From Trueperella pecoris (GTDB lineage Bacteria > Actinomycetota > Actinomycetes > Actinomycetales > Actinomycetaceae), in assembly GCF_014926385.1 (NCBI RefSeq), contig NZ_CP053291.1, positions 1-64,000 on the forward strand: a stretch of 64,000 nt of DNA, given 5' to 3'. Below the pieces are notes generated by a model. That model had not been told where the DNA came from and searched no databases. It saw only the letters and a list, made by a program, of their open reading frames with translations. Shown one piece after another: positions 29,542 to 50,177 of the stretch; positions within the stretch are counted from its first letter, which is position 1; every line of letters begins with the position of its first letter. The translations under genes and the position numbers were made by a program.

Positions 29542-29614
29542 GCCGCCTTAGCTCAGTCGGTAGAGCGTCTCACTCGTAATGAGAAGGTCGTGGGTTCGAT
29601 TCCCACAGGCGGCT
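29542..29614 (+). tRNA. tRNA-Thr(CGT), integration target
   Basis: A 73-nt cloverleaf has acceptor gccgcct/aggcggc, the D-arm tagctcagtcggtagagc and anticodon stem tctca/tgaga. The loop ctcgtaa gives anticodon CGT (codon ACG). Its 3' 39 bases, plus one further base, form the left attachment core of the conjugative element. The gene stays intact after integration because the element brought the same 3' sequence. Confidence 0.95.
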
Positions 29615-29923
29615 CAGATTGGCCTCGGACTCGGAAGAGTTCGGGGCCAATTTCTTTTGCTCAACTGCGACCATTTCGTCGGAGAGCAACTCTGCCAGTG
29701 GAAGGTCTAGAAAGGCTGCTGCCTTGACGAGATCTGTAGCGGACCATGTGCTTCGGCCAGCAATCTTATGGGAGACGGCCGCGGGCGTGATACCCAGAAG
29801 AGCGGCGAGGTCGCGTTGCATTAGCCCTTTTCGCCGGAGCCAAATATGCACCCGCTCACCAATGTTCTCATCAAGCGTTTGAGTCATTGCGAAAGTGTCG
29901 ATAGAGGCTGTCATACTTAGCAT
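29570..29923 (-). CDS. XRE-family repressor whose frame crosses attL
   Basis: The 117-aa protein has a clear lambda-type HTH (MQRDLAALLGITPAAVSHKIAGR). It lies divergent from the excisionase gene, as expected for the element repressor. The frame runs through the terminator, the 40-bp core and into the tRNA gene, where it stops at 29570-29572. The last residues (WESNPRPSHYE) are antisense tRNA. In the circular form the codon after Tyr116 would be AAG from the right end, and the frame stays open to 49605. Internal starts at 29914 and 29887 are possible. Confidence 0.8.
   Translation of the reverse strand: MLSMTASIDTFAMTQTLDENIGERVHIWLRRKGLMQRDLAALLGITPAAVSHKIAGRSTWSATDLVKAAAFLDLPLAELLSDEMVAVEQKKLAPNSSESEANLSRLWESNPRPSHYE
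29576..29615 (+). other. attL core (40 bp)
   Basis: The 40 bases from gtaatgagaagg to ggcggctc are identical at 49929-49968. They begin in the anticodon loop and end one base after the tRNA. This is the typical crossover region for tyrosine recombinases that use tRNA genes. Confidence 0.92.
29618..29657 (+). terminator. Element-borne terminator for tRNA-Thr
   Basis: A 15-bp stem (29618-29632 with 29637-29651, two wobble pairs) and GGAA loop is followed by ttcttttgc. It starts three bases after the core. It replaces the native terminator, which integration moved 20 kb away to 49979-50016. Confidence 0.8.
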
Positions 29924-30035: not shown

Positions 30036-30263
30036 ATGGCTACCGAACTACTGACTACCCGACAGGTTGCCAATCTAGCGAAAGTCTCGCGTCAGACTGT
30101 TGCGAGATGGGTTGCGGACGGCAAAGTCGCGGCTGTGACCCTGCCTGGGGGTCAGCTGCGCTTTGCCCGTGAGGATATTGAGGCGATGCTGACTCCCACG
30201 ATTGCGACTGAGCGTTCCGCTGATGAGGGTGAGTCTTTTCCTAGTCAGGAGGGCTTGTTTTGA
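30036..30263 (+). CDS. MerR/excisionase-like DNA-binding protein
   Basis: The 75-aa protein has a winged-helix excisionase domain: LLTTRQVANLAKVSRQTVARWVADGKV, then a LPGGQLRFAREDIEAML wing. Small proteins of this type at attL usually act as recombination directionality factors or activators of transfer genes. The stop overlaps an ATG that opens a 16-codon frame leading into the next gene. Confidence 0.8.
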   Translation: MATELLTTRQVANLAKVSRQTVARWVADGKVAAVTLPGGQLRFAREDIEAMLTPTIATERSADEGESFPSQEGLF

Positions 30264-32646: not shown

Positions 32647-33027
32647 ATGGCTCTCGAGGTTCAAGTTTTCGGCGAGATTAACCGTTATCAGCCAAAGGTT
32701 ATTTTTGGTTTGTCGTGGCGGCAGGCTGGCGTGGCTTTGGTGGCTTTGCCGGTTATCGGCGGTCTGTATGCGGCGTGTTATGTTGCCGGGCTCGAGGATC
32801 TAGGTGTGGTTCTCGTGGTATTGGGGGCCATTCCCGCTATAGCGGTCGGTTGGGTTCGGCCGATGGGTATCAAGTTCGAACAGTATGTGGGTTATTGGTG
32901 GGCACACCAACAAACTCATTCTCCATTTGTTTATGCAGAAATGAAGGTCGACCATGCGGATACGGATGAGAAAGGCACGCGGCGGGAAAGCAAAGCACGC
33001 ACGCGCCGTTTCGAAGCAACCAACTAG
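32647..33027 (+). CDS. PrgI-family conjugation membrane protein
   Basis: The 126-aa product begins MALEVQVFGEINRYQPKVIFGLSWRQ, the usual PrgI opening. Two membrane helices follow, then RPMGIKFEQYVGYWW and a basic tail. It corresponds to VirB3 of classical T4SS. It overlaps the VirB4 start by 74 bp. Confidence 0.85.
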   Translation: MALEVQVFGEINRYQPKVIFGLSWRQAGVALVALPVIGGLYAACYVAGLEDLGVVLVVLGAIPAIAVGWVRPMGIKFEQYVGYWWAHQQTHSPFVYAEMKVDHADTDEKGTRRESKARTRRFEATN

Positions 33028-35335
33028 GCCGCGTAAAGCCTCGCAGAATGCGATTGCATACGAGGCCATGGCTGAATCTGGGTTGTGTTATCTAGGTGGG
33101 AAGAAGTACTCGATCTCGCTGAGACTGTCAGATATTGATTATCAGCTAGCGCCTTCGAGTCTTCAAGAAAGCCTTGTTGAAAAGTATGCCAAGTTCCTTA
33201 ATGGTCACTTGGCTGGCCAGCATGTTCAGATCACGATTTTGAATCGTGTGCTTGATAAGAAGCAGTTATCTGAGGATGTGGCCTTGAGGCCGCGTCAGGA
33301 CGGGCATGATGAGGCAAGGAGCGAGTATAACTCGTTGATTACCTCTCGGCTTGAAACTGGGCGTAATAACACGTTAACGGAAAAGTTCTTGACTGTGACG
33401 GTGGAGGCGGAATCGGTTGAAGAAGCCAAAAGCATGCTTGCCCGTGTGGCTGCCGAGGATGCGGCAGTGCTTCGTGAGGTCGGTGGATGTCGAGCGAGTC
33501 AAATGAATGGTGAAGAGCGTGTGCGGATCTTGCAAAGTTTTCTTCGCCCAGGTCAGCCACATGGTTTTTCTTTTAGTGATTTGATTGGGCAGAAGCTCAC
33601 GACGAAGGACGCGGTCGCACCGTGGTCGATTGATCATGCTTCAAATCGTGATTGGGTCAAGCTTACCTCCGGGTCTACCCGGTATTGGCAGACGTTCGTG
33701 CTGCGCAAGCTACCGCCATGGATGAGTGATCGATTGGTGAGCGAGCTTGCGGATATTCCTGCTGATTTAGCGATTTCGATCCACCTTGATCCGCAAGATC
33801 AAGCTGAAGGGCTGCGTCTGGTTAAGCAGCAGATTTCTGGTATGGATATTCAGCGCTCGAATGAGCAGCGCAAGCTGGCTAAGCAGAATCTGTCGTATGA
33901 TTTGATGCCTCATGAATTGGCTGCTGCTCATGAAGAAGCCATTGCGTTGCGTGATCAGTTGGAGAAAACGAATGAGAAGTTGTTTTCCTCCACGATTGTT
34001 ATCGGGGTGGCCGGTGCGACGGTTGAGGAGCTAACTGAGACTGCTAAGCGTGTGTTGCGTGTGGCCGGAAAGCACTCATGTCAGCTGGAAATTCTGCGCT
34101 ATATGCAGCTTGATGGGCTTAATGCGCTGATCCCGTTGGGTGTATCAGCGTTGCCGGTTCGCCGGACGATCACTACAGCGGTGGCAGCAGTGCTGGTGCC
34201 GTTTACGACTCAGGAGATTCTCCAGCCCTCCGGCAATTTCTATGGCGTCAATGCCTTGTCGAAGAATTTGATTGTTGCTGACCGGTTGAAGGGGATGAAC
34301 TCTAACGGGTTCATCTTAGGTACGACAGGTTCAGGCAAGTCACAGTTCGCCAAATTTGAAATTGAGCAGACCTTCTTGCGTCGTCCTAACGACGAGATTC
34401 TTATTGTGGATCCTGAACGTGAATATGGGCCGTTGGCTGAGGAACTTAACGCTGCACGTGTGGTGATCTCTGCGGGGTCAAACCAGACGATCAATGCGTT
34501 GGATCTGGACAAGAATGCTCACACAGATACTAATCCGGTACGTGAGAAGTGCTCCTTTGTCTTGTCTCTTGCTGAGGTGCTTGTGGGCGGCGCTGACGGG
34601 CTCAGTGCTGAAAAGCGCTCGATTCTTGATCGGTGTTCTCAGCAGATGTATCGCGAGTATTGGAACGGTGCTGATAGACAGCCTCCCACACTCGAGACGC
34701 TCTACCGTCTTCTTGGTGCTCAGCCCGAGCCGCAGGCTCGTGAATTGGCTACTGCGTTTGAGCTCTATGCGCGTGGATCGGCCTCGGCCTTTGCTCAGCA
34801 AACTAATGTTGATCGCACGAACCGGGTGACGATTTTTGATATTCAAGATCTTTCTAACGACCTTCAAACTTTCGGCATGATGGTCATTTTGGAAGAAATC
34901 TGGGCGCGTATCACGCGCAACAAAGCTCGCGGTGTGCGTACCTGGGTCTACATTGATGAGTTCCATCTCCTCTTCGGTAACGATTTTGCCGCACAATACT
35001 GTAAGGCGATGTTTAAGCGCGTGCGTAAGTATGGGGCCGCAGCAACAGGGATTACGCAGAACATTGAAGAGCTGTTGGCCAATGATCATGCCCGGTTGAT
35101 GTTGTCTAACTCCAATGGGCTGTTTTTGCTTAACCAGCAACCTACCGATGCTGAGGCTCTGGCCGAACTCCTTAAGCTCTCTACTCAGCAGTGCGGCTAC
35201 TTCACGAATGTGACAGCCGGGTGTGGACTGATGAGGATTGGTGAGGCGATCGTTCCGTTTGATAACACGATGGACACCTCCTCACGTATCTTCAAGGTCT
35301 TCTCCACCAAGTTCCGTGAAGGTGGTGAGCAGTAA
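32954..35335 (+). CDS. VirB4-like conjugation ATPase
   Basis: The 793-aa protein has Walker A GTTGSGKSQFAK at about residue 456, ILIVDPEREYGPL, and Walker B WVYIDEFHLLFGN, then the ATGITQNIEELL motif of VirB4/TraE ATPases. It energises channel assembly. The start at 32954 lies inside prgI; a start somewhat later cannot be excluded. The stop overlaps the next start (TAATG). Confidence 0.93.
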   Translation: MRIRMRKARGGKAKHARAVSKQPTRPRKASQNAIAYEAMAESGLCYLGGKKYSISLRLSDIDYQLAPSSLQESLVEKYAKFLNGHLAGQHVQITILNRVLDKKQLSEDVALRPRQDGHDEARSEYNSLITSRLETGRNNTLTEKFLTVTVEAESVEEAKSMLARVAAEDAAVLREVGGCRASQMNGEERVRILQSFLRPGQPHGFSFSDLIGQKLTTKDAVAPWSIDHASNRDWVKLTSGSTRYWQTFVLRKLPPWMSDRLVSELADIPADLAISIHLDPQDQAEGLRLVKQQISGMDIQRSNEQRKLAKQNLSYDLMPHELAAAHEEAIALRDQLEKTNEKLFSSTIVIGVAGATVEELTETAKRVLRVAGKHSCQLEILRYMQLDGLNALIPLGVSALPVRRTITTAVAAVLVPFTTQEILQPSGNFYGVNALSKNLIVADRLKGMNSNGFILGTTGSGKSQFAKFEIEQTFLRRPNDEILIVDPEREYGPLAEELNAARVVISAGSNQTINALDLDKNAHTDTNPVREKCSFVLSLAEVLVGGADGLSAEKRSILDRCSQQMYREYWNGADRQPPTLETLYRLLGAQPEPQARELATAFELYARGSASAFAQQTNVDRTNRVTIFDIQDLSNDLQTFGMMVILEEIWARITRNKARGVRTWVYIDEFHLLFGNDFAAQYCKAMFKRVRKYGAAATGITQNIEELLANDHARLMLSNSNGLFLLNQQPTDAEALAELLKLSTQQCGYFTNVTAGCGLMRIGEAIVPFDNTMDTSSRIFKVFSTKFREGGEQ

Positions 35336-37869: not shown

Positions 37870-39543
37870 TTAAAAGCGCGGGGAGGGGAGTTTGTGCGAG
37901 AGGAAGGGGCTCACACCTCGTAGGACGTAGATGCACTGTGAGGCTGGGAGGCGGCCGATCTCGTCTGGGGTGAGCAGTTCCCTGCCGAGGCGGCGATCTG
38001 AAGTGGAGAAGGAGCCGTTGCGACCCTTGGAGCGTGAGTTATCGGTGCCCATGATGGTTTGTTTACCGAGGAGTTCCGAGACGTATTTGGTTGTAGAGTT
38101 TTCGTTGCCACCTAGGAACAAGAATGAGTCACAGTTGCCGACGATGGTTTCCCAATCGTCTTTGTATATGGCTTTTCCTTGGGCAAAGTTTTGGATGAGG
38201 ATCGATACTGACAGACCACGCGACCGCATGACAGCGATTTTGCGTTCGAAGGATGGGATGCGGCCGATGTTGGCAAACTCATCCATGAAGCACTGAACCA
38301 TGATAGGGAGACGGCCGGTATCTTTATGGTCGGCGATGTAGAGATTGGTTTCAAAGAGCTGTTCATAGAAGATGGAGACAATGAAGTTAAATGCGGCATG
38401 AGTGTCAGGGATGATCGCAAAAATCGCGGTTTTCTCTGTCCCAAGTTGGTCGAGGCCAATTGAATCTGAGGAGAGTAGGCGGCGTAGTTGGCCCATGTGG
38501 AGCGGGGCCATACGCACACCAAGGGAAATGATGACTGACTTTTTCGTTTCTCCTGCTCCTTGGGTGTAGGTGTTGTATTGGGCGGCGGCGAAACGAAGAC
38601 CGGAGTGGAGCTGGGATGCGTCGGCAGTAAATCGCGCCGGGTCTGCCTGGTCGAGCTCGCTGACGAGTTCATTGAGGGCTTCAAAGATCAGATCGACCTC
38701 GCTGCGGGCGGTCTCATTTTCTTCTGAAGCGCTCATTTTTGCAAGCAGATCGACGACGTCGATCAGCGTGCCTTGGGTCCCTTTGGTGAAGTAGATATAG
38801 GAGATTAAAGCGTTAAGTAGGGCGCGTTCGGCCTTTTCCCAAAAATCTTGGCCGGTGGCAGGTTTTTTACCGGTGGTGTTAGCGATGAAGTTTTCTGTCA
38901 GAATCGTGCAGCCAACTTCGGCCTGGTCGGGGTTGAAATACCTCAGTGGATTGAATGTGTCAGAGTTAGCAAAGTCGATCAGATTAAGCTGACGAACCTG
39001 ATAGCCGCGCTGACGCAGTGAATCAGCACTAGCGCGGTAGATCTCTCCTTTAGGATCAGTGATGACTAGAGAGGTAGAGGCATTAGCAATGTTGGGCAAG
39101 ACGAAGTAGCGGGTTTTTCCTGAGCCAGAGGAGCCGATGCCAAGGACATTGAGATTACGCTGAGTTTTCCTTGAGTCAAGCGAGAGGGCCTCGGTTTGCG
39201 TAAAAAGCAGGTTGTTGGCCTTGTGGCGATCCTTGAATGGGTTGATGTCGCTAGGGCGTGCCCATTTGGCTGATCCGTGCTCGACGTTCTGGCGTCGCAT
39301 GCTCTTTGTGGCGTTGTTGTAGAGCCAGATGAGTAGGCCGGTCAGGACAAGGCCTAGGCCGCCGGCGAGGTCGATGAGCTCGAAGGACAGATGTGTGGGG
39401 TCGGCGGTGAGGTCATCGAGGCATCGATCCACGATGGTGGACATCTCACGGCCGGCCAGATAGTCGGTTCGTACCTGCCAGGTGATCTTATTACCTGCCC
39501 AAAAGCCTACGAGGGTAAGGAGAAGGGAGAATACTTTGCTCAC
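37870..39543 (-). CDS. VirD4-type coupling protein
   Basis: The 557-aa protein has two N-terminal membrane helices, the NVEHGSAKWA segment, Walker A GIGSSGSGKTRYF, ITDPKGEIYR, Walker B MVQCFMDEFANIG, and SILIQNFAQ near the C-terminus. It is somewhat short for the family. It docks the relaxosome to the channel. The start is coupled to the stop of the preceding gene by a 4-bp overlap. Confidence 0.93.
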   Translation of the reverse strand: MSKVFSLLLTLVGFWAGNKITWQVRTDYLAGREMSTIVDRCLDDLTADPTHLSFELIDLAGGLGLVLTGLLIWLYNNATKSMRRQNVEHGSAKWARPSDINPFKDRHKANNLLFTQTEALSLDSRKTQRNLNVLGIGSSGSGKTRYFVLPNIANASTSLVITDPKGEIYRASADSLRQRGYQVRQLNLIDFANSDTFNPLRYFNPDQAEVGCTILTENFIANTTGKKPATGQDFWEKAERALLNALISYIYFTKGTQGTLIDVVDLLAKMSASEENETARSEVDLIFEALNELVSELDQADPARFTADASQLHSGLRFAAAQYNTYTQGAGETKKSVIISLGVRMAPLHMGQLRRLLSSDSIGLDQLGTEKTAIFAIIPDTHAAFNFIVSIFYEQLFETNLYIADHKDTGRLPIMVQCFMDEFANIGRIPSFERKIAVMRSRGLSVSILIQNFAQGKAIYKDDWETIVGNCDSFLFLGGNENSTTKYVSELLGKQTIMGTDNSRSKGRNGSFSTSDRRLGRELLTPDEIGRLPASQCIYVLRGVSPFLSHKLPSPRF

Positions 39544-40239: not shown

Positions 40240-41249
40240 CGGTTCAGTCCTCTCGTCTTCACTGGTGCTGGGGCAGGGCGAGTATTGTGCTGCTTTACCT
40301 TGGCCTCGATCTTGGAAGTGAGCCTGTCTTTGATCATTTTTGGGGTGATCGTGCCCTCGAAGGAATGGAGGATCTTCTCAGTTCGGTCAAGGCCAGGTGG
40401 GGTCGTGGACGCTATATCATCGAGGCGGGCCAAGATAAGCTTGGCGGGATTAAACATCTTCTCGGCTGGCGGCAGGGGCCGGCTTGAGAGCCGTTGGCTA
40501 ATCTGCGAACTCTTCCAGCCTTTATCTGCTGCCTGGCCGATAAGGATGCGTGCTTGGGTTTGAGCGTCGCGGCCAAGATAGGTCATCATGTGGGCAGGGA
40601 TCGTTGATTCGAGGCTGACGTTTGGGGCCAGGTCGGTGTCGTTGATCCATTCCAGGACGGTTTCTTCAACGATCTCGGTTTCCCCGGCCACGATGCCATC
40701 ATCAGCCAACGTCCACTCTCTAGGCTCGTCAAGTACGGCGTCAACGTCGATTGATGCTGTACCAGGATGGTCTTCGATCTCAATCTCGCTTGCCCTTTCA
40801 ATCTCGGTAGACTTAAGTGAGGTGTCGGGATCATCGCGGTCGGGATAGTGCCGGTCGATTGCTGATGCTACTTGTGCGATGGCGTGACGGACGGTGTCGA
40901 CGTCGGCACCCTTGAAGTGGAAGTATGTATGCCCGTCTTTGCCCTTTTCCAAGGAGAAGTCCAGCCCACGTCGTTTGAGGTCTTTCTTGAGCCGAGAGAC
41001 AAGTTCAGGGGCGATTTCTTGGGCATGTAGGTCACCGCCCGAAGAGCGCTGTAGTTTCTTCAGGCTCATTTTCCCTTGTGGCTCGGTATGGATGCCGGGT
41101 ACTTTCTTCAAGGCCCGTCCGCTGGCTTTCAAAACAGCGGAAGTCGATCTGGCGGTGCCATTCCATAGGGCTCCGCTGACTTTAATGCCAGCTTGGGTCA
41201 ATGCGATAGTGATTTGTTGGGCGAATTGTTCGCCTCCGAGAACGCTCAT
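40236..41249 (-). CDS. PcfB (DUF3801)-like transfer protein with extension
   Basis: The 337-aa product has an N-terminal part like PcfB: SLKKLQRSSGGDLHAQEIAPEL, LKKDLKRRGLDFSLEKGKDG, then YFHFKGADVDTVRHAIAQV. An acidic linker and a helical C-terminal region (GWKSSQISQRLSSRPLPPAEKM...) follow, which resembles the C-terminal region of the 445-aa initiator-like protein. PcfB-type proteins help relaxase processing at oriT. It overlaps the relaxase stop by four bases. Confidence 0.7.
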   Translation of the reverse strand: MSVLGGEQFAQQITIALTQAGIKVSGALWNGTARSTSAVLKASGRALKKVPGIHTEPQGKMSLKKLQRSSGGDLHAQEIAPELVSRLKKDLKRRGLDFSLEKGKDGHTYFHFKGADVDTVRHAIAQVASAIDRHYPDRDDPDTSLKSTEIERASEIEIEDHPGTASIDVDAVLDEPREWTLADDGIVAGETEIVEETVLEWINDTDLAPNVSLESTIPAHMMTYLGRDAQTQARILIGQAADKGWKSSQISQRLSSRPLPPAEKMFNPAKLILARLDDIASTTPPGLDRTEKILHSFEGTITPKMIKDRLTSKIEAKVKQHNTRPAPAPVKTRGLNR

Positions 41250-42634
41250 CGACGTCTTTTCCTTTCTGGTGGTGTGATCTGATTGCGAGCTGTTTTCAGA
41301 TGGTTAAGGTCTTTGCTTGCTTGGGTGATGTCATAGTCAAGGTCGCCTGTGGGTAGGTGGTGGTCTTCGCGATGCTGTCGGTCCAAGATCATGGTCGAAA
41401 TGGTTTGGCTTTGAACTTCGATGCGCTGATTGAGTGCCTGGCGGAAGAGCTCCTTGTGCTCAGGGGTGAGCGATCGATATTCGGTACGGAGATTGACTAC
41501 TGCTGCTTCACTACGCAGCTTTTCCACGCGTGAATCGATCCACCGGTAGTAGCTCTTCTGTCGTTCGGTTAGGCCGCGCTCGGTGTGTTGGGATGGCATT
41601 GTGGGATTGATGTTGCGTAGTGGGTCTGGCACGGAGAAGTATTCATAGAGTTCCGGTGCGGTGAGCTGACCGGCATAATTTCCATGCTTGTCGGTCAGCG
41701 TGATCTCGGAGCTTTCCGATAAGAAAATACGGCTGGTCTTGCCCAAGGAGTTGACCTGCTCAGAGTGCACGGTGAAGAATGTCGCCGGCCGTTTACCTGG
41801 AAGGCGTATACGCAACCGTTCCTCGTCGAGCGTGGTGATGAGAGAGGGCTGAGCAATAAACTCGCACACGGTCTCTCTGCCTAGGCGTGCCATGATCGCT
41901 GACTGGGTGTAGGCAGGACCCAGCCGACGGCCGCGGATGGGGCGCTGCATGGTTGTCGTGTCTTTGAACAGGACGTTTTCGCCTTTGAGCTCGACCTCGA
42001 CTCCCATCTCAGACAACGTGGTGACCATGTCTGGCCAAGCCGCGGTATCTCTTACGGCAACATCTATTTTCAAAGCAAGAAGTTGCACGGAAGACTTTCC
42101 GTGTGCGCGAGCGTAGATTTCATGAAGATTTCGGGCGCCGCGTTGGGGAATCTCGATCACTGATAAACCAGCCGACCGGCATAATTCGTCGGAGATTTCT
42201 CGGAATTCGAACACACGAGACTTCCCCATGCGATAACGCTTGAGGGTTGTCTTGTTAACGGGATTGAACATGATGTGGTTGTGGATGTGGGATCGGTCTT
42301 GGTGGGTGGCAACAACGTAATCGTGTTCGCCCCCGGTGATGCGCTCAATGAGCTCAACGCCAAGATCGTGAGCATCATTGGGTGAGACTTCACCGGGGGC
42401 GAAGGACTGGATGATGTGATGAGCAAGAATGGGTGTGGCTGATCCGCCTGAGCGGCGCATCCGCTCCGCAAGCTCGACCGTCCACCCGAAGGCCATAGCA
42501 ATATCTGAAGGAAATTGCGGTGCGGCACAATTTGAGGACACCATGATCCCGCCATTAGTCTTTGCGGGATTACAGATGTACTCAATCGCCGCTTTGAGGG
42601 TCGTCCTCACCTGCATAATCTTGATGATCGCCAT
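41246..42634 (-). CDS. MobA/VirD2-type relaxase
   Basis: The 462-aa protein has a relaxase domain in its first about 200 residues: AIEYICNPAKT with a candidate Tyr near residue 18, HHIIQSFAPGEVSPNDAHDLG, and the metal site DRSHIHNHIMFNPV. A long helical C-terminal part follows. It nicks at oriT and stays linked to the transferred strand. The start lies within the mobC-like gene (53-bp overlap), as in many MobP elements. Confidence 0.9.
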   Translation of the reverse strand: MAIIKIMQVRTTLKAAIEYICNPAKTNGGIMVSSNCAAPQFPSDIAMAFGWTVELAERMRRSGGSATPILAHHIIQSFAPGEVSPNDAHDLGVELIERITGGEHDYVVATHQDRSHIHNHIMFNPVNKTTLKRYRMGKSRVFEFREISDELCRSAGLSVIEIPQRGARNLHEIYARAHGKSSVQLLALKIDVAVRDTAAWPDMVTTLSEMGVEVELKGENVLFKDTTTMQRPIRGRRLGPAYTQSAIMARLGRETVCEFIAQPSLITTLDEERLRIRLPGKRPATFFTVHSEQVNSLGKTSRIFLSESSEITLTDKHGNYAGQLTAPELYEYFSVPDPLRNINPTMPSQHTERGLTERQKSYYRWIDSRVEKLRSEAAVVNLRTEYRSLTPEHKELFRQALNQRIEVQSQTISTMILDRQHREDHHLPTGDLDYDITQASKDLNHLKTARNQITPPERKRRR

Positions 42635-42998
42635 GGATACTCCCAGCTTTATCCTCCGCCACGAGACGGCGAATTTCTCGCAAGAGATCCAGAGCCTCCA
42701 AAGCCATATCTCCCGTCAAGTGACGTTCAGTATTGGCCCATCGAGCGATCTGGTTGATGTTATTGCCTACGCGGCCTATCTGCCCGAGCAGAGCTTGATC
42801 AGACTCGGGACGATAGACCACTTCGACGCGTCCAGTTGATAACACGTCACGAGCGTATTGCGAAAAATTCGTGATGTCGTTGGTGCGCATCCGGCGCAAA
42901 ATCCGATCCCACTCCACGGCGGAAAAGTACACATTCTTTTGTACCGTCCGCCTCCTTGTGGCTGACACTTGTGGTCTCCTTAAGGGGTTTGGGTTCAC
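42582..42998 (-). CDS. MobC-like relaxosome accessory protein
   Basis: The 138-aa protein has a basic N-terminus, then VQKNVYFSAVEWDRILRRM and a segment YARDVLSTGRV. The LLGQIGRVGNNINQIARWAN motif is the hallmark of MobC proteins. It binds near oriT and helps melt the nick region. Upstream lies a nested inverted repeat that is a likely oriT part. Confidence 0.88.
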   Translation of the reverse strand: MNPNPLRRPQVSATRRRTVQKNVYFSAVEWDRILRRMRTNDITNFSQYARDVLSTGRVEVVYRPESDQALLGQIGRVGNNINQIARWANTERHLTGDMALEALDLLREIRRLVAEDKAGSIHGDHQDYAGEDDPQSGD

Positions 42999-44211: not shown

Positions 44212-45093
44212 TTAAGCGTTGACCGTGTTTTCTTGTTTCCATTGTTCCGCATACTTCCGCGGGCTGAGGTAGCCGAGTGCGGAGTGCGGATGGAAGTTAT
44301 TGTAACGTGATGACCATTGGGCCACGAGTAGGCGGGCATGCTCAAGGTTCTCGATACTGTTGTCCTCGAGGAGTTCGTCTCTCATCCGGTTATGGAACGA
44401 CTCAACGAACCCGTTATGCCATGGCTGGCCTGGCGGAATGAGCGCTTGGATCGTCTTATCCTCGGCCGCCCAGGCCTCGAGGGCGTGGGCTATGAACTCA
44501 GGCCCGTTGTCCATCCGAATCACCCTAGGGCGTCCTCCGCGCTCCAGACAAGCCACGTCGAGCAGTTCGATCACCGAGCCCGCATCAAGCTTTTTATCGA
44601 CCGCGAAGGCGACGTGCTCGCGGGTGTATTCATCAATAATGTTGCAAATCTTGATCATCTTGCCATGCCAGGTTGAATCGAACTGGAAGTCCAACGCCCA
44701 CACGTCGTTCGGGTACTGGCCAGCAGGAACATCACGCTGGCCGTGACCACTGAGGCGTTTACGCTTCTTGCGCGGCAACACGCGTAGACCTTCTTCACGC
44801 CACAAGCGCCGGAAAGTTTCCCGGCATACCCCATAACCCTCGGCGAGGGCGTTTCTCCAGGCACGCCGGTGTCCCCACCGGCGGTGATCACGCGCGAACT
44901 CGTGCATCCACTCGCGCAAGTCCGCGTATTTATCCGGCGTGCTTTCACGGGTCCTAGCGCGCCGGTAAGCACTGCGAGAGAGCCCAACGATCTGGCAGGA
45001 AAGTCTTTGGGAATAGCCCAGCCCAACGAGATGCCAGACGGCATCATGGCGGCGAGCTGGGCTTAGAAGTTTCCCTCCGATAATTCTTTCCAC
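44212..45093 (-). CDS. IS3-family transposase OrfB (DDE catalytic part)
   Basis: The 293-aa frame has an HTH_21 region (REWMHEFARDHRRWGHRRAW) and the rve catalytic domain: VWALDFQFD (first Asp), RMDNGPEF (second Asp) and GFVESFHNRMRDELL (Glu). It opens with GTG inside orfA and lies in the -1 frame relative to it. It is normally made as an OrfAB fusion by frameshifting near the tggaaag sequence. All catalytic residues are present, so the IS may be active. Confidence 0.9.
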   Translation of the reverse strand: MERIIGGKLLSPARRHDAVWHLVGLGYSQRLSCQIVGLSRSAYRRARTRESTPDKYADLREWMHEFARDHRRWGHRRAWRNALAEGYGVCRETFRRLWREEGLRVLPRKKRKRLSGHGQRDVPAGQYPNDVWALDFQFDSTWHGKMIKICNIIDEYTREHVAFAVDKKLDAGSVIELLDVACLERGGRPRVIRMDNGPEFIAHALEAWAAEDKTIQALIPPGQPWHNGFVESFHNRMRDELLEDNSIENLEHARLLVAQWSSRYNNFHPHSALGYLSPRKYAEQWKQENTVNA

Positions 45094-45347
45094 GCAGCCT
45101 TCTCCAGCTCTGCCTGACCCAGGAGGCGTTTGAGGCGCGTGTTCTCATCGCGCAGGCGCTGGAGCTCTTTCGCTTCGCTCTTGGTCATCGACCCATAGGT
45201 TGCCTGCCACCTATTCAACGTGGCTTCACTAATCCCAAGTTCGGTCAGGATCTGAGCCGTCGTCGAGCCTGATTCCTTCATCTCCCGCGCCTTATCAAGC
45301 TTACGAACAATCTGCTCAGGAGTATGCTTACTGAACTTCTTCACCAT
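45063..45347 (-). CDS. IS3-family transposase OrfA
   Basis: The 94-aa protein has an HTH (TPEQIVRKLDKAREMKESGSTT, then GISEATLNRW) and a leucine zipper (ELQRLRDENTRLKRLLGQAELEKAAW), the standard OrfA layout resembling the IS407-type group. It overlaps OrfB by 31 bp. Confidence 0.9.
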   Translation of the reverse strand: MVKKFSKHTPEQIVRKLDKAREMKESGSTTAQILTELGISEATLNRWQATYGSMTKSEAKELQRLRDENTRLKRLLGQAELEKAAWKELSEGNF

Positions 45348-45415: not shown

Positions 45416-46180
45416 CTAGGGCACTCCAGGGCCTTTGGGTAAATGTTTGGAGGAATTCTTCGGAATGAACCGTGCCGAAAGTTTCTCACCAATACGTTCT
45501 TGTATGTAAGTACGGACCTCGACGGCGCTCATCTTCTGTGCGGGGTCTGTTTCCGGAACAACTACTTGATCAAGAACGTCAGCTAGATGTGCGTTTGACC
45601 CGCTTACTTGGGAATGAAAACGTGCCTGAACAAATTTATCCCTTAGTGGTTGCCTAGCCAGTTTGTGCAGTGGCAACGGGTGGCCTGCCATTTCTGCCAA
45701 CTGGGCGAAGAAAACAGACTGAGTTCTAGTGTTGCCTTCACGAAAAGAATGAACAACATTGATCTCGCCCCATGCCTCCGCTAGCTGGAGGACAAATTCG
45801 TCACGGGGTAAGCCGCGGAGGAAGTCTGCCTGTGCGAGGCTAGCGAACTGGGCCTCGGCCGCCGCGGTGAGCCCAGGTCCGGGCGGATAATAGGGGTGAC
45901 CAGCTTTCTGCATACCGACAGTGCGCTCTTGGCCTGCCCACGGGTAAATGTCTTGAAAAATATGACGATGAACAGCCTTGAAGTGTGCATACGAAAAATC
46001 GCTCGCCAGTGGTCGGGAAATCCATTGGAGAATGCGCCAAGCGCTTAACTCATCCTCGGCGGCAGCCAGCATCCGACTATCACGAAGTCCAAGATGATTG
46101 ATAAGAACACCATTCCCATCAATGCCGATAGTCTCAGGGTAGAAATACGATTCCCAAGAAGATGCTTGGAAGTCCATCAT
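45416..46180 (-). CDS. Fic-domain AMPylator toxin (VbhT/FicT-like)
   Basis: The 254-aa protein has the Fic fold: FSYAHFKAVHRHIFQDIYPWAG, an ATP-site flap with MQKAGHPYYP, and the catalytic loop H144-SFREGNTRTQ-S155. The catalytic His, acidic residue, Gly-Asn and first Arg are present. The consensus HxFx(D/E)GNGRxxR would have Arg at 155; here it is Ser. It is preceded by a VbhA-like antitoxin with a TGATG junction. Fic toxins AMPylate topoisomerases or other targets. Confidence 0.88.
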   Translation of the reverse strand: MMDFQASSWESYFYPETIGIDGNGVLINHLGLRDSRMLAAAEDELSAWRILQWISRPLASDFSYAHFKAVHRHIFQDIYPWAGQERTVGMQKAGHPYYPPGPGLTAAAEAQFASLAQADFLRGLPRDEFVLQLAEAWGEINVVHSFREGNTRTQSVFFAQLAEMAGHPLPLHKLARQPLRDKFVQARFHSQVSGSNAHLADVLDQVVVPETDPAQKMSAVEVRTYIQERIGEKLSARFIPKNSSKHLPKGPGVP

Positions 46181-46368
46181 CAGCGCTTAACCGCGGCAAG
46201 AACCTCGGTAAGGTACTCCTCGTCGGTGATCTCACCGCGAGCAGAGCGGAGGATGCGGTCACGTGCTTGAGGGCTTAGCTCATTACCGCCAGCAATACGC
46301 ACAGCCGCGCCAGCCTCCTCAAGGGCTGCCTCAAGACTCAACCGCACACGTGCAATAGGTGTAGACAT
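46180..46368 (-). CDS. VbhA-like antitoxin of the Fic pair
   Basis: The start at 46368 follows a strong GGAGGAG site (complement of 46376-46382). The 62-aa product has LSPQARDRILRSARGEITDEEYL, the C-terminal signature of VbhA-like antitoxins. The inhibitory helix that should read (S/T)xxxE(G/N) aligns with A22-VRI-A26-G27, so both Ser and Glu are Ala. It sits immediately upstream of fic, the usual order. Confidence 0.75.
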   Translation of the reverse strand: MSTPIARVRLSLEAALEEAGAAVRIAGGNELSPQARDRILRSARGEITDEEYLTEVLAAVKR

Positions 46369-46470
46369 AGCAATCTCCTCCCTCTCTAACACCACCAATT
46401 CTACCAGCGGCCAACCCGTCACAATAGAGAAGAAAACTCATGATGTGAGCAGTTAGTACGTCATTTAACG

Positions 46471-47325: not shown

Positions 47326-47661
47326 TTATACGATGCGGAAGTTTGGTACCACTCCGGCTTTCACGGCTGTAAATTGCTCACCATCGTTGAGTCGTTGCTC
47401 GGTTTCAAGGACGGCCTGCTCGAGGTGGTGTGTGGCCCAGGCTGATAGTGAGGTTATTCCTGAACCGGCTGATAGGTCAGCGAGGAAAGCTGCCCTGATT
47501 CTTCCATGGAGGTTATTGTCAAGGCGGATGGTTAGTTTTGTGCGAGCATCCTTGTTAACGATGCTGGCAGTGCTGGCAGTGCTGGCGGTGCCGGCTATGA
47601 TTGGGTCGTTAACGGGTGCTTTCGACAGGGTCGTCAAGAATTCTGGGTTTGGTTTTTTCAT
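47326..47661 (-). CDS. Ribbon-helix-helix partner of ParA
   Basis: The 111-aa protein has a flexible N-terminus containing AGTASTASTASI, then TKLTIRLDNNLHGRIRAAFLADLSAG and SLSAWATHHLEQAVLE. The short strand TKLTIRL followed by two helices is a ribbon-helix-helix fold, the type of centromere-binding protein in type Ib/III partition systems. It overlaps parA by four bases. Its own coding sequence contains four 9-bp units like those in the iteron arrays. Confidence 0.75.
   Translation of the reverse strand: MKKPNPEFLTTLSKAPVNDPIIAGTASTASTASIVNKDARTKLTIRLDNNLHGRIRAAFLADLSAGSGITSLSAWATHHLEQAVLETEQRLNDGEQFTAVKAGVVPNFRIV
47562..47597. repeat. Iteron array 1 (inside RHH gene)
   Basis: Four 9-bp units (tgctggcag, tgctggcag, tgctggcgg, tgccggcta) code for the STA repeats of the RHH protein. 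The same unit forms arrays 2 and 3. Confidence 0.65.
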
Positions 47662-48431
47662 CGGAGATTGTCCTTTAGCGTTGTGGTGATGGCTGTAAGG
47701 GCGGCTATAACAGCGTCGTCAGTGGTGGCAATAGGTTCATGTGCTGAGGCTGCTCGGGCGATGGCTTCGCGTTCTGGAATGAAGGGCTCGATGAGGTATC
47801 TACCGTAGTGCTCGCGCAATGCGCGTGCCCATTCTTGACGGTCGGTGCGATCTGGTCGCCATTCATTGACTGCAATGCCAGACAGTCTAAGACGCGGGTT
47901 GTAGTGTGCGCGAACGGTGGCGATGGTGTTGACCATTTCTGCTACTCCGTCAAAGGAGGCTTCGCGTGTGGTGGTCACGATCAGTGCGACGTCGGCAGCG
48001 ACGAGCGCGTTTGTTGTAAGCATTCCCAGAGAGGGTGGACAGTCAATGACAATATGGTCATAGCTGGTGCTCATGGCAGATGACATAGTTGCGAGCCGTG
48101 ATTCACGCCCAAGACTTGTGTCAGATTCTCTGGAGGCCAGAAGGCGATCCGATGGAAGTACATCAATATTCCAGGTGCGATGCTCGCTGGATGGGGATAT
48201 CGCTTGACGAGCGACGTCTCCGGATGCGCCTGTGGCGATAGCTGCCAAAACATCATTGAGAGTGAGTTGGCTAGAGCCAAGGCGTACATTCGTCACGGTT
48301 GTCGCGTTGCCCTGCGGATCAGCATCCACAAGTAACGTCGTCTCGCCACTGTTGGATAATAGATGGGCGAGGTTCGTGGATAGCGTGGTCTTGCCAACCC
48401 CGCCTTTTTGGTTACATACCGCGATAATCAT
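47658..48431 (-). CDS. parA: ParA-family partition ATPase
   Basis: The 257-aa protein has the deviant Walker A CNQKGGVGKTTLS (residues 7-19), LLVDADPQGN as motif A', and VIDCPPSLGML as Walker B. It is short and lacks an N-terminal HTH, as in type Ib ParA. Together with the RHH protein and the iterons it should keep the excised circle in dividing cells. Confidence 0.93.
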   Translation of the reverse strand: MIIAVCNQKGGVGKTTLSTNLAHLLSNSGETTLLVDADPQGNATTVTNVRLGSSQLTLNDVLAAIATGASGDVARQAISPSSEHRTWNIDVLPSDRLLASRESDTSLGRESRLATMSSAMSTSYDHIVIDCPPSLGMLTTNALVAADVALIVTTTREASFDGVAEMVNTIATVRAHYNPRLRLSGIAVNEWRPDRTDRQEWARALREHYGRYLIEPFIPEREAIARAASAHEPIATTDDAVIAALTAITTTLKDNLR

Positions 48432-48465: not shown

Positions 48466-48502
48466 GTGCCAGCACCTACGGCACTGCTGGCAGTGCTGGC
48501 GG
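48466..48502. repeat. Iteron array 2 (parA promoter region)
   Basis: A 19-bp sequence gtgccagcacctacggcac (48466-48484) and two tgctggc-type units (48485-48502) lie 35 bp upstream of parA. The 19-bp sequence is repeated exactly in reverse at 49844-49862. This is where a par operator would be expected. Confidence 0.65.
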
Positions 48503-48503
48503 G

Positions 48504-48815
48504 TTATTTGGTGCGGAATGTTGGTAAAGAGTATTTTTGTGCGATTGTGTTGAGCTCTTTACGGTAGGCGAGGATCGCTTTTGAGACGTGCTGTCCTTTG
48601 GATACGAGGCGCACCATTGCCTCAATGTCGTCGGTGTCAAGCACGGCTTGGAAGTGCTCACGGGTTTTGTCGTGAGCAAGATCGAGCTCGGCCGCGAGCA
48701 GCACGTTGGGTATCTGCCAGTAGGTGTTGGTTAAATCGCCACGCAAGAGCTTACGAGCTACGTCTCCATGCTTGGGATCACGGGTATAAGCGATGAGTTG
48801 TTTTATTGATGTCAT
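48504..48815 (-). CDS. Hypothetical protein coupled to integrase
   Basis: The 103-aa protein overlaps the integrase stop by four bases and is charged and helical (IAYTRDPKHGDVARKLLRGDL; REHFQAVLDTDDIEAMVRLV). It has no membrane segment and no recognised motif. Its position after int suggests a helper or regulatory role in recombination or maintenance. Confidence 0.6.
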   Translation of the reverse strand: MTSIKQLIAYTRDPKHGDVARKLLRGDLTNTYWQIPNVLLAAELDLAHDKTREHFQAVLDTDDIEAMVRLVSKGQHVSKAILAYRKELNTIAQKYSLPTFRTK

Positions 48816-49687
48816 GAGGGATTCCTGTTAGCTGAAGTTGGAGGATTTGAATCGGTCGTGGTGAATACTGGTAGGAGGTTGGTTGCTTCAGCCTCCTGGT
48901 TGTGCGCTACACGGGTATATAGCGCGGTGGTTTGAATAGATTCATGGCGAAGAAGTTCTTGAACAACGCGTATGTCTGCGCCGTGGCGAAGTAGCTCAGT
49001 ACCGTACGCGTGTCGGAGTTGGTGTGCGGTCATGGAAATTCCGTGTTTGGCAAATGCACGCTGAATTGTCGCGCCGACTGATGCTGGCCTGACGTGTCCC
49101 CCTACTGGTGAAGGGAACCAATATCCAGATCGTGGCATCGTTTCGAAGAGCGGGATTAATCCATCATTGATTGGGAGGAGCGATAGCTGTCCTCCTTTGC
49201 CTTCAACGGTAAATTGTTTGGCGACTAAGTCGAAGTCTTGACCGCGAGCTTTAGCGATTTCCGATACTCGAAGGCCACAGTTAAAAGCGAGGACGATCAT
49301 GCAGCGTGTTGTTTTGCGGAGTCCGCCAGCAAGTACTCTCGCAATATGCTCCGCAGCAATGGGCCTTGGACGATACTTAGGGCGTTTTGGTGCTCTCATA
49401 CCGAGAAGAGGGTTCTTTTTGCGTTTGCCTGTGATTTCTAGCCACCTGAAGAGCGCGCGTAAATGAGTAAAGTAAGTCCACTTCGTCTCTGCGCTGGGTT
49501 GGACAGAAATCCATTCAACGATCTCGCTTGTGGTCAATGACAAAGGGGAGCGATCCTGCGCTTCGCAGATTCTTTGCGTGATGCGCACGCGCTCCTCAAT
49601 GGTTTTAAGACTCAAGGCTTGTGCGTGCATGGCGGTTGTCCAGTCGCGGCAGATGTGAGCGGTCTGAATTTGGTTGTGTATTTCCAT
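48812..49687 (-). CDS. int: Tyrosine recombinase / integrase
   Basis: The 291-aa protein has an N-terminal SAM-like core-binding domain (SLSLTTSEIVEWISVQPSAE...) and a catalytic domain. The latter shows Arg in CGLRVSEIAKA, H-x-x-R in TAHQLRHAYGTELLR, then LRHESIQTTALYTRV with His and the nucleophilic Tyr. It is short and XerD-like. It lies 240 bp from attR, reads away from it, and should catalyse integration into tRNA-Thr. Confidence 0.93.
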   Translation of the reverse strand: MEIHNQIQTAHICRDWTTAMHAQALSLKTIEERVRITQRICEAQDRSPLSLTTSEIVEWISVQPSAETKWTYFTHLRALFRWLEITGKRKKNPLLGMRAPKRPKYRPRPIAAEHIARVLAGGLRKTTRCMIVLAFNCGLRVSEIAKARGQDFDLVAKQFTVEGKGGQLSLLPINDGLIPLFETMPRSGYWFPSPVGGHVRPASVGATIQRAFAKHGISMTAHQLRHAYGTELLRHGADIRVVQELLRHESIQTTALYTRVAHNQEAEATNLLPVFTTTDSNPPTSANRNPS

Positions 49688-49767
49688 GTTCCAAGATTGC
49701 GCCCATGAAGGCCTCCAAGGCGGCTATAGATATGCATTTGCCTTCGATGTCGATGATTGCTGCACTT

Positions 49768-49857
49768 GTCAGTGCTGTCAGTGCTGTCAGTGCTGTCAGT
49801 GCTGTCAGTGCTGTCAGTGCTGTCAGTGCTGTCAGTGCCAGCGGTGCCGTAGGTGCT
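49768..49857. repeat. Iteron array 3 (ten 9-bp units next to attR)
   Basis: Seven perfect tandem copies of gtcagtgct (49768-49830) are followed by three degenerate ones. The last bases overlap the 19-bp sequence shared in reverse with array 2. The array lies between the integrase start and the right attachment core. There are no spacers, so it is not CRISPR. Confidence 0.9.
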
Positions 49858-49928
49858 GGCACATGACTAACGAAAAAGATCCAGATATCCCATATGATTT
49901 CCCATACTGCCCACGAAGGGTTGCTCTT

Positions 49929-49968
49929 GTAATGAGAAGGTCGTGGGTTCGATTCCCACAGGCGGCTC
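49929..49968 (+). other. attR core (40 bp)
   Basis: It is identical to 29576-29615. The left flank (ttgctctt) is element sequence. The right flank (cagagggaag) is the original chromosomal sequence after the tRNA gene. Confidence 0.92.
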
Positions 49969-49978
49969 CAGAGGGAAG

Positions 49979-50016
49979 TCCCCGCGATCACAACGAAAAG
50001 TGGTCGCGGGGATTTC
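49979..50016 (+). terminator. Displaced native terminator of tRNA-Thr
   Basis: A 13-bp stem (49979-49991 with 50000-50012, one wobble) and T-rich tail tttctt lie right after attR, where the tRNA-Thr terminator stood before insertion. Confidence 0.8.
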
Positions 50017-50177
50017 TTCATATCGAGGCCCAAACGCGGATTTGACAGCCATGAGGACAGCCATTCGGCTTTACCCGGGCGTGTGAGCGGTTTCCGCGCT
50101 GGTGTGCCGGTTCTCGCTCCTAGGATAAGGGAGTGCTTCGGGGCGAGGCTCAACGCGAGATCTTATGTATAGACCGG

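What the first reader, a model, noticed from the sequence alone, without database searches (positions are those of the whole stretch)
29570..29923. Repressor reading frame crosses the attachment core: integration would switch its C-terminus
The element's XRE repressor ends in the integrated state at a TGA inside the tRNA gene (29570-29572), 117 aa. The crossover core (29576-29615) lies inside the frame. In the excised circle 49928 would join the core. I checked the phase: the codon after Tyr116 becomes AAG, and the frame stays open through the iteron array to 49605, adding 107 residues and overlapping the integrase start. Repressor, attP and int would then be collinear. Mycobacteriophages such as BPs and Brujita use this layout for integration-dependent immunity, where integration truncates and stabilises the repressor. 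I know of no such case in a conjugative element of this family, but I could not search.
Basis: partly seen in the sequence, partly recalled or inferred. Interest (0 to 1): 0.85.

Follow-up and report, generated by a model that had tools for sequence, protein, structure and literature searches.

The report
Integration-switched repressor in conjugative element
A conjugative element keeps its attachment site inside its own repressor gene, so integrating into a tRNA gene shortens the repressor and separates it from the integrase gene, an arrangement known from mycobacterial and Gordonia phages and found here across a group of conjugative elements.

Summary
The 40-bp core (29576-29615 = 49929-49968) lies inside the XRE repressor frame. 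In the reconstructed circle the frame continues 107 codons to 49605, into the integrase start. It is not a one-off. Every XRE relative examined runs into the antisense 3' end of a tRNA gene, or of a tRNA-like remnant in one case, without an earlier stop. At least ten further conjugative elements (two T4SS types) carry the same repressor-attP-int order. The window's integrase (43%) and excisionase-like protein (46%) match Babsiella, a Brujitavirus. Babsiella's attP is 35/40 identical to the window core and is crossed by its repressor at the same tyrosine. So this is the phage integration-dependent immunity cassette carried by an ICE. I found no paper in the held library describing that. What is not shown is that the long form is unstable or inactive. 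Most ICE tails lack the phages' -AA(A) tag, are variable, and show no amino-acid-level constraint. The repressor frame is, however, the longest of three in 14 of 19 circles, and the tails tend to be hydrophobic (weak statistics). A further consequence is that the circle, but not the integrated copy, puts int downstream of the repressor promoter.

The parts
29570..29923 (-). XRE (HTH_3) repressor, integrated form, 117 codons as called (likely start Met4, 29914); C-terminus RLWESNPRPSHYE encoded antisense to tRNA-Thr
   Evidence: Pfam HTH_3 6.6e-7; PHROG 2328 'transcriptional repressor' matches residues 15-117, tRNA-encoded end included
29542..29615 (+). tRNA-Thr(CGT), host attB gene, kept intact at attL
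   Evidence: ARAGORN
29576..29615 (.). attL copy of the 40-bp core, inside the repressor frame
   Evidence: exact match to 49929-49968
49929..49968 (.). attR copy of the core
29616..29653 (+). element-supplied rho-independent terminator for the tRNA, overlapping repressor codons on the other strand
   Evidence: 17-pair stem plus T tail; -27.1 kcal/mol, native terminator displaced to attR
49605..49928 (-). 3' part of the repressor frame (107 codons plus stop) that joins the repressor only in the excised circle
   Evidence: longest of the three frames
48812..49687 (-). tyrosine integrase, 291 aa, no room for an arm-binding domain; directly downstream of attP in the circle
   Evidence: Phage_integrase 2.7e-26; 43% identity to Babsiella and Purky integrases over 262 aa, starting at residue 16
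30036..30263 (+). divergent small HTH_17 excisionase/Cro-like gene
   Evidence: HTH_17 3.3e-12; TIGR01764 excise above cut-off; 46-51% identity to phage counterparts
29934..29945 (.). candidate operator palindrome CAGATTAATCTG between repressor and the divergent gene (function untested)
49767..49838 (.). eight 9-bp iterons (TGTCAGTGC) between attP and int, read in frame by the tail; probable partition (parS-like) site
   Evidence: TRF; similar units at 47562-47595 and 48480-48500 beside parA
32954..35335 (+). VirB4-like conjugation ATPase (identifies the element as an ICE)
   Evidence: NCBIfam CD1110 family, 928 bits against cut-off 325
37870..39543 (-). VirD4-like coupling protein
   Evidence: NCBIfam CD1115 family above cut-off
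41246..42634 (-). MOB relaxase (with MobC at 42582-42998)
   Evidence: Pfam Relaxase 1.1e-30; MobC 5.9e-9
47658..48431 (-). ParA ATPase downstream of int
   Evidence: Pfam AAA_31 1.3e-42

Best explanation
The ICE (29576-49928, about 20.4 kb) carries the repressor-attP-integrase cassette of the phage integration-dependent immunity kind. In the excised circle the repressor promoter drives one collinear unit: long repressor (about 220 aa), attP inside its frame, then int. The long form carries a variable, mostly hydrophobic tail that I think makes it unstable or inactive, so the divergent excisionase/transfer operon is not shut down and integrase is made. Recombination into tRNA-Thr replaces the tail by a stop inside the tRNA gene, giving a short, active repressor, and cuts int off from the repressor promoter; both effects hold the element in the integrated state. 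Shown: anatomy, frames, homology of the three genes, conservation across elements. Inferred: autonomous excision, that the XRE represses the divergent operon, that the long form is weak, and that the repressor promoter reaches int.
For: Core, frame and stop verified. Gene order excisionase/Cro (divergent), repressor, attP, int is identical to Babsiella, Purky, Dogfish and Pipp. Int is 43% identical to Babsiella/Purky and 41% to Dogfish; HTH_17 is 46-51% identical to Babsiella/Dogfish; repressor HTH is 38-40% identical to Dogfish/Pipp. Babsiella attP is 35/40 and Purky 36/40 identical to the window core, crossed in the same frame at the same Tyr (SRLGESNPRPIHY|Q...ADAAA; window SRLWESNPRPSHY|K...). 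No relative has a stop between HTH and core (25/25); with a profile that excludes the tail, 20 of 24 order-wide hits end inside an antisense tRNA and the other four have no tRNA found nearby. Same cassette with both att sites in CD1110-type ICEs G060, G065, G062b, G131, G059, G056 and in elements with a second T4SS type (G113, G155, G054 by Pfam relaxase, and coupling protein for G113 and G155; G159, G162 by similarity). Repressor frame is longest beyond the core in 14/19 circles; in all 7 CD1110-type clusters counting G069 and G055. Median tail 54 codons against 21 in the other two frames. All alignment gaps between related tails are multiples of three.
Against: Most ICE tails end without -AA (only G070 and G079 end in -LVA). 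Differences between related tails fall equally on the three codon positions (9,7,11; 19,16,16; 5,5,5), so the tail's sequence is not conserved as protein. The 9-bp iterons lower the chance of a stop. Some circles give short tails (G054 10, G079 18, G077 21, G056 23). No excised circle was observed; the conjugative function of this copy is untested and it carries an IS3-like insertion. G069 is counted with the CD1110-type clusters by its integrase only; no VirB4 of this type was found in that genome.
Confidence: 0.6

Rival explanations
1. Promoter-operon switch only. The circle places int behind the repressor promoter and integration disconnects it; the extra repressor residues are a by-product with no effect on activity.
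For: int follows attP on the same strand in the resolved elements apart from the doubtful G082 and G010. Tail sequence is unconstrained and mostly lacks ssrA-like ends. Circle-specific int promoters are established in ICEs (ICEKp1, PMC13023037).
Against: It does not explain why the repressor frame itself, rather than just its promoter, is kept open through the core in all relatives and is usually the longest frame beyond it. In phage BPs, with the same layout, the long form is degraded (PMC4557955).
Confidence: 0.25
2. Passive overlap. The repressor gene simply ends in whatever stop the tRNA gene offers, which is easy because antisense tRNA 3' ends are open in all frames, and the circle form has no consequence.
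For: All three antisense frames through tRNA 3' ends are usually open; iterons of 9 bp suppress stops; one circle alone has P = 0.017 and many have P above 0.1.
Against: Gene-for-gene homology to phage cassettes of a studied kind, conserved order and conserved crossing across tRNA-Thr, Met, Arg, Lys and Asn targets.
Confidence: 0.1
3. The cassette is a phage remnant captured by the ICE and no longer used for regulation.
For: Homologues of all three genes are found in phages; some XRE loci are orphans without a related integrase nearby.
Against: Found with both att sites in at least ten conjugative elements of two T4SS types with diverged sequences and intact frames; attL and attR cores are exact.
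Confidence: 0.05

Closest known systems
Integration-dependent immunity of Brujita-type mycobacteriophages (Babsiella, Brujitavirus; Purky)
   Same: Gene order, homologous integrase (43%), Babsiella excisionase/regulator (46%), tRNA-Thr attP core 35-36/40 identical, repressor crosses it in the same frame at the same residue.
   Different: The host element is an ICE with relaxase and T4SS; the long repressor ends -SLES not -ADAAA/-DADAA; integrase ends -RNPS not -AA; the HTH region is not alignable with Babsiella's repressor beyond the tRNA-encoded end.
Gordonia phage Dogfish (Nyceiraevirus) and Pipp repressor-int cassettes
   Same: Repressor HTH 38-40% identical, Int 41% (Dogfish) and 31% (Pipp); order conserved; about half of the Gordonia phages with identified sites were described with integration-dependent immunity (PMC5559632).
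   Different: Tails not hydrophobic and ending -VAAA/-PAAA.
Mycobacteriophage BPs gp33 (136 aa viral / 103 aa prophage)
   Same: attP inside the repressor ORF, integration truncates the repressor, int collinear downstream (PMC4557955).
   Different: In BPs the long form's ssrA-like tag and loss of activity were shown by experiment; no such tag here.
M. abscessus prophages with integration-dependent immunity
   Same: tRNA transcribed toward the truncated repressor; several repressors also lack -AA tags (PMC8092301).
   Different: Phages, not ICEs.
ICEKp1 / ICEclc state-dependent int promoters
   Same: Excision rewires int transcription through the circle junction (PMC13023037).
   Different: A promoter switch; nothing in the abstract read points to an altered repressor coding sequence.

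Membership tests
Integration-dependent immunity system | attP core lies within the repressor reading frame | tested here: met
   conserved in relatives
Integration-dependent immunity system | Integration truncates the repressor by a stop at attL | tested here: met
   TGA 29570-29572 inside the tRNA
Integration-dependent immunity system | Tyrosine integrase gene directly downstream and collinear, divergent Cro/excisionase gene upstream | tested here: met
Integration-dependent immunity system | Arm-less integrase, as in Brujita | tested here: inconclusive
   291 aa; alignment to Brujitavirus Int starts at residue 16, leaving no room for an arm-binding domain; not shown biochemically
Integration-dependent immunity system | ssrA-like (-AA) degradation tag on the long form | tested here: not met
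   ends -RTSLES; typical but not universal in the known family (PMC8092301)
Integration-dependent immunity system | Long form unstable or inactive, short form confers immunity | not testable with these tools
   needs expression experiments
Integration-dependent immunity system | Carried by a temperate phage | tested here: not met
   element encodes VirB4, VirD4, relaxase, MobC. So: works like, and its int and HTH_17 genes are homologous to, the phage systems, but it sits in an ICE
Integrative and conjugative element (CD1110/CD1115 T4SS type) | VirB4, VirD4, relaxase, integrase between direct-repeat att sites | tested here: met
Integrative and conjugative element (CD1110/CD1115 T4SS type) | Excision and conjugative transfer | not testable with these tools
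   no circle observed

The most novel reading that the evidence does not exclude
Conjugative elements use integration-dependent repressor switching with their own kind of off-signal: a hydrophobic, membrane- or protease-directed tail instead of the phage ssrA-like tag. In one lineage (G159, G113; G122 by its attR side) the circle encodes an in-frame repressor-integrase fusion, so integration splits one chimeric gene into a repressor and a separate integrase.
Probability: 0.25. Interest if true: 0.8.

Novelty: new variant of a known kind. Interest (0 to 1): 0.62.

Why it matters
How an ICE that has just entered a cell knows it has integrated, and only then shuts transfer down, is an open regulatory question. 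Here the DNA rearrangement itself rewrites the repressor and cuts off the integrase, with no sensor. It extends a phage switch to conjugation, gives a simple test (compare two versions of one protein), and suggests that database proteins ending in tRNA-antisense strings such as WESNPRPSHYE, often dismissed as spurious, can be real repressor C-termini.

Tried and rejected
Tail conservation as protein: rejected by codon-position counts. ssrA-like tag on the window's tail: not present. Hydrophobic tail as a general rule: above the open-frame, dinucleotide-matched null in the five original CD1110-type clusters (Fisher p = 0.012) but not significant in two out-of-sample cases (p = 0.15), so kept only as a hypothesis; the idea was also formed after seeing the data. 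Native attP in viral contigs: the integrase scan found nothing and the repressor alignment was too diverse to search. Plasmid records: no close repressor or integrase relatives in ICE-like plasmids. A shared operator motif across relatives was not evident. Second att copies for G194, G192, G196, G180, G099 and others were not found within 60 kb, and no related integrase was found near them. G082 and G010 have doubtful boundaries and no integrase; they count as unfavourable cases in the 14/19. Literature: no paper in the held library joins 'integration-dependent immunity' with 'integrative and conjugative'; subscription journals are not covered, and the original 2013 Mol Cell paper is not held.

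Full report
Observation. On the repressor strand the integrated copy ends ...LSRLWESNPRPSHYE* with its TGA inside tRNA-Thr(CGT). In the circle the same frame reads ...SHY-KSNPSWAVWEIIWDIWIFFVSHVPAPTAPLALTALTA...RTSLES*, 223 codons, ending at 49605, 83 bp into the integrase gene. Relatives suggest that translation starts at Met4. The antisense strand of tRNA 3' ends is open in most frames, so the tRNA part alone carries little weight; the question is what happens before and after it.

The element. Between the att copies lie VirB4 (NCBIfam CD1110 family, above cut-off), VirD4 (CD1115 family, above cut-off), PrgI, a weak TrbL/VirB6 match, a CHAP/NlpC protein, relaxase, MobC and ParA. It is an ICE.

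Relatives. In 213 genomes of the family, 34 hold an XRE relative. All 25 loci read in detail, the window included, run without a stop into an antisense tRNA 3' end: Thr-CGT, Thr-TGT, Met, Lys, Arg and Asn; one (G062a) shows a tRNA-like end but no tRNA gene was detected. Because the first query contained the tRNA-encoded tail, I repeated the search with a profile lacking it: 20 of 24 loci read still end in or run through an antisense tRNA, and the other four have no tRNA found nearby. Both att copies could be found for 17 elements and the circle rebuilt; the repressor frame is open to the core edge in all 17, with a median further run of 54 codons against 21 in the other two frames, and is the longest of the three in 12/17 (binomial p = 0.003 if independent, which related elements are not). 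Two more, joined from separate contigs (G069, G055), agree. Seven carry the CD1110-type T4SS (window, G060, G065, G062b, G131, G059, G056). G113 and G155 have relaxase and a coupling protein of a second T4SS type by Pfam; G054 has the relaxase by Pfam and a coupling protein by sequence likeness; G079 has a coupling protein; G159 and G162 are alike by sequence. G077 looks like a phage from its open reading frames (terminase-, capsid- and tape-measure-like; read by eye).

Link to phages. The window's integrase finds 246 phage records, led by Purky, Xula and Babsiella. Babsiella and Purky have the same order: divergent excisionase/regulator, repressor, integrase. Their attP cores match the window's at 35 and 36 of 40 positions, and their repressors read SRLGESNPRPIHY| across it, then tails ending ADAAA and DADAA. 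PHROG 2328, a phage repressor family, matches the window repressor to its very end. For BPs it is established that the short form is active and the long form is degraded through its C-terminal tag, and that clusters I, N and P use the same system (PMC4557955). In M. abscessus several such repressors lack the tag (PMC8092301), so absence of a tag does not exclude the mechanism.

What differs. ICE tails vary in length (10 to 107, or 345-349 where the frame runs into the integrase, G159 and G113; G122 shows the same run on its attR side), mostly lack -AA, and show no excess of silent changes. They keep the frame, with all observed gaps multiples of three. In the original five CD1110-type clusters each tail is more hydrophobic than the mean of matched open shuffles (combined p = 0.012), while the phage tails examined are not hydrophobic; this was noticed after the fact and two later cases were only mildly in the same direction.

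A second layer. A strong terminator on the tRNA strand begins right at the core edge, within the repressor's codons (29616-29653), replacing the native terminator that integration moves to attR. Similar hairpins occur at this place in several relatives. The segment between HTH and tRNA therefore has two jobs, which may explain its poor conservation as protein.

Mechanism and verdict. Shown: layout, frames, homology and conservation. Inferred: state-dependent stability or activity, promoter reach into int, and repression of the divergent operon. I judge it 60% likely that the cassette acts as an integration-dependent switch including a repressor effect, and 25% that only the operon coupling matters. 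It works like, and shares homologous int and HTH_17 genes with, the phage systems, with a repressor HTH related to Gordonia phage repressors, but it is carried by an ICE and lacks the usual tag: a new variant of a known kind. I found no earlier report for ICEs in the held library, which does not cover subscription journals.

Noticed in passing
window 29616-29653 and 49966-50018: The ICE supplies its own terminator for the captured tRNA inside repressor codons and displaces the native terminator to attR.
   Followed up: yes
window 49767-49838, 48480-48500, 47562-47595: 9-bp iterons at three places around parA, including just beside attP and inside the small ORF after parA (47326-47661); probably a partition site. 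Similar short repeats lie beside attP in several relatives.
   Followed up: partly
G159 (L154-L156), G113 (L234-L236), G122 (L277): Across attP the repressor frame is continuous with the integrase frame; the circle would encode a repressor-integrase fusion of over 450 aa (G122 judged from the attR side only).
   Followed up: partly
own genome G000:C1:1483746-1484033 (L206): A second XRE of the same kind ends antisense in tRNA-Met; no related integrase or second att copy within 60 kb, perhaps a remnant.
   Followed up: partly
G060 and G065 (L117-L119, L143-L145): The two ICEs share an identical attP-int side over the compared stretch but carry different repressor types on the other side of attP, with the frame kept: module exchange at the attachment site. 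The G060 integrase is interrupted.
   Followed up: partly
window 44212-45347: IS3-like insertion sequence (two overlapping ORFs) inside the ICE, judged from the ORFs only.
   Followed up: no
window 45416-46422: Fic-domain protein with a small upstream ORF, a possible toxin-antitoxin pair carried by the ICE.
   Followed up: no
G230, G503, G353 (L247-L257): Elements in another family of the order also combine an XRE of this kind with T4SS genes; their att sites were not resolved.
   Followed up: partly
G271 (L262-L263): Two tandem integrase-bearing elements at one tRNA-Lys gene with three core copies; the first element's rebuilt repressor tail is 31 residues and ends -AVPA.
   Followed up: partly
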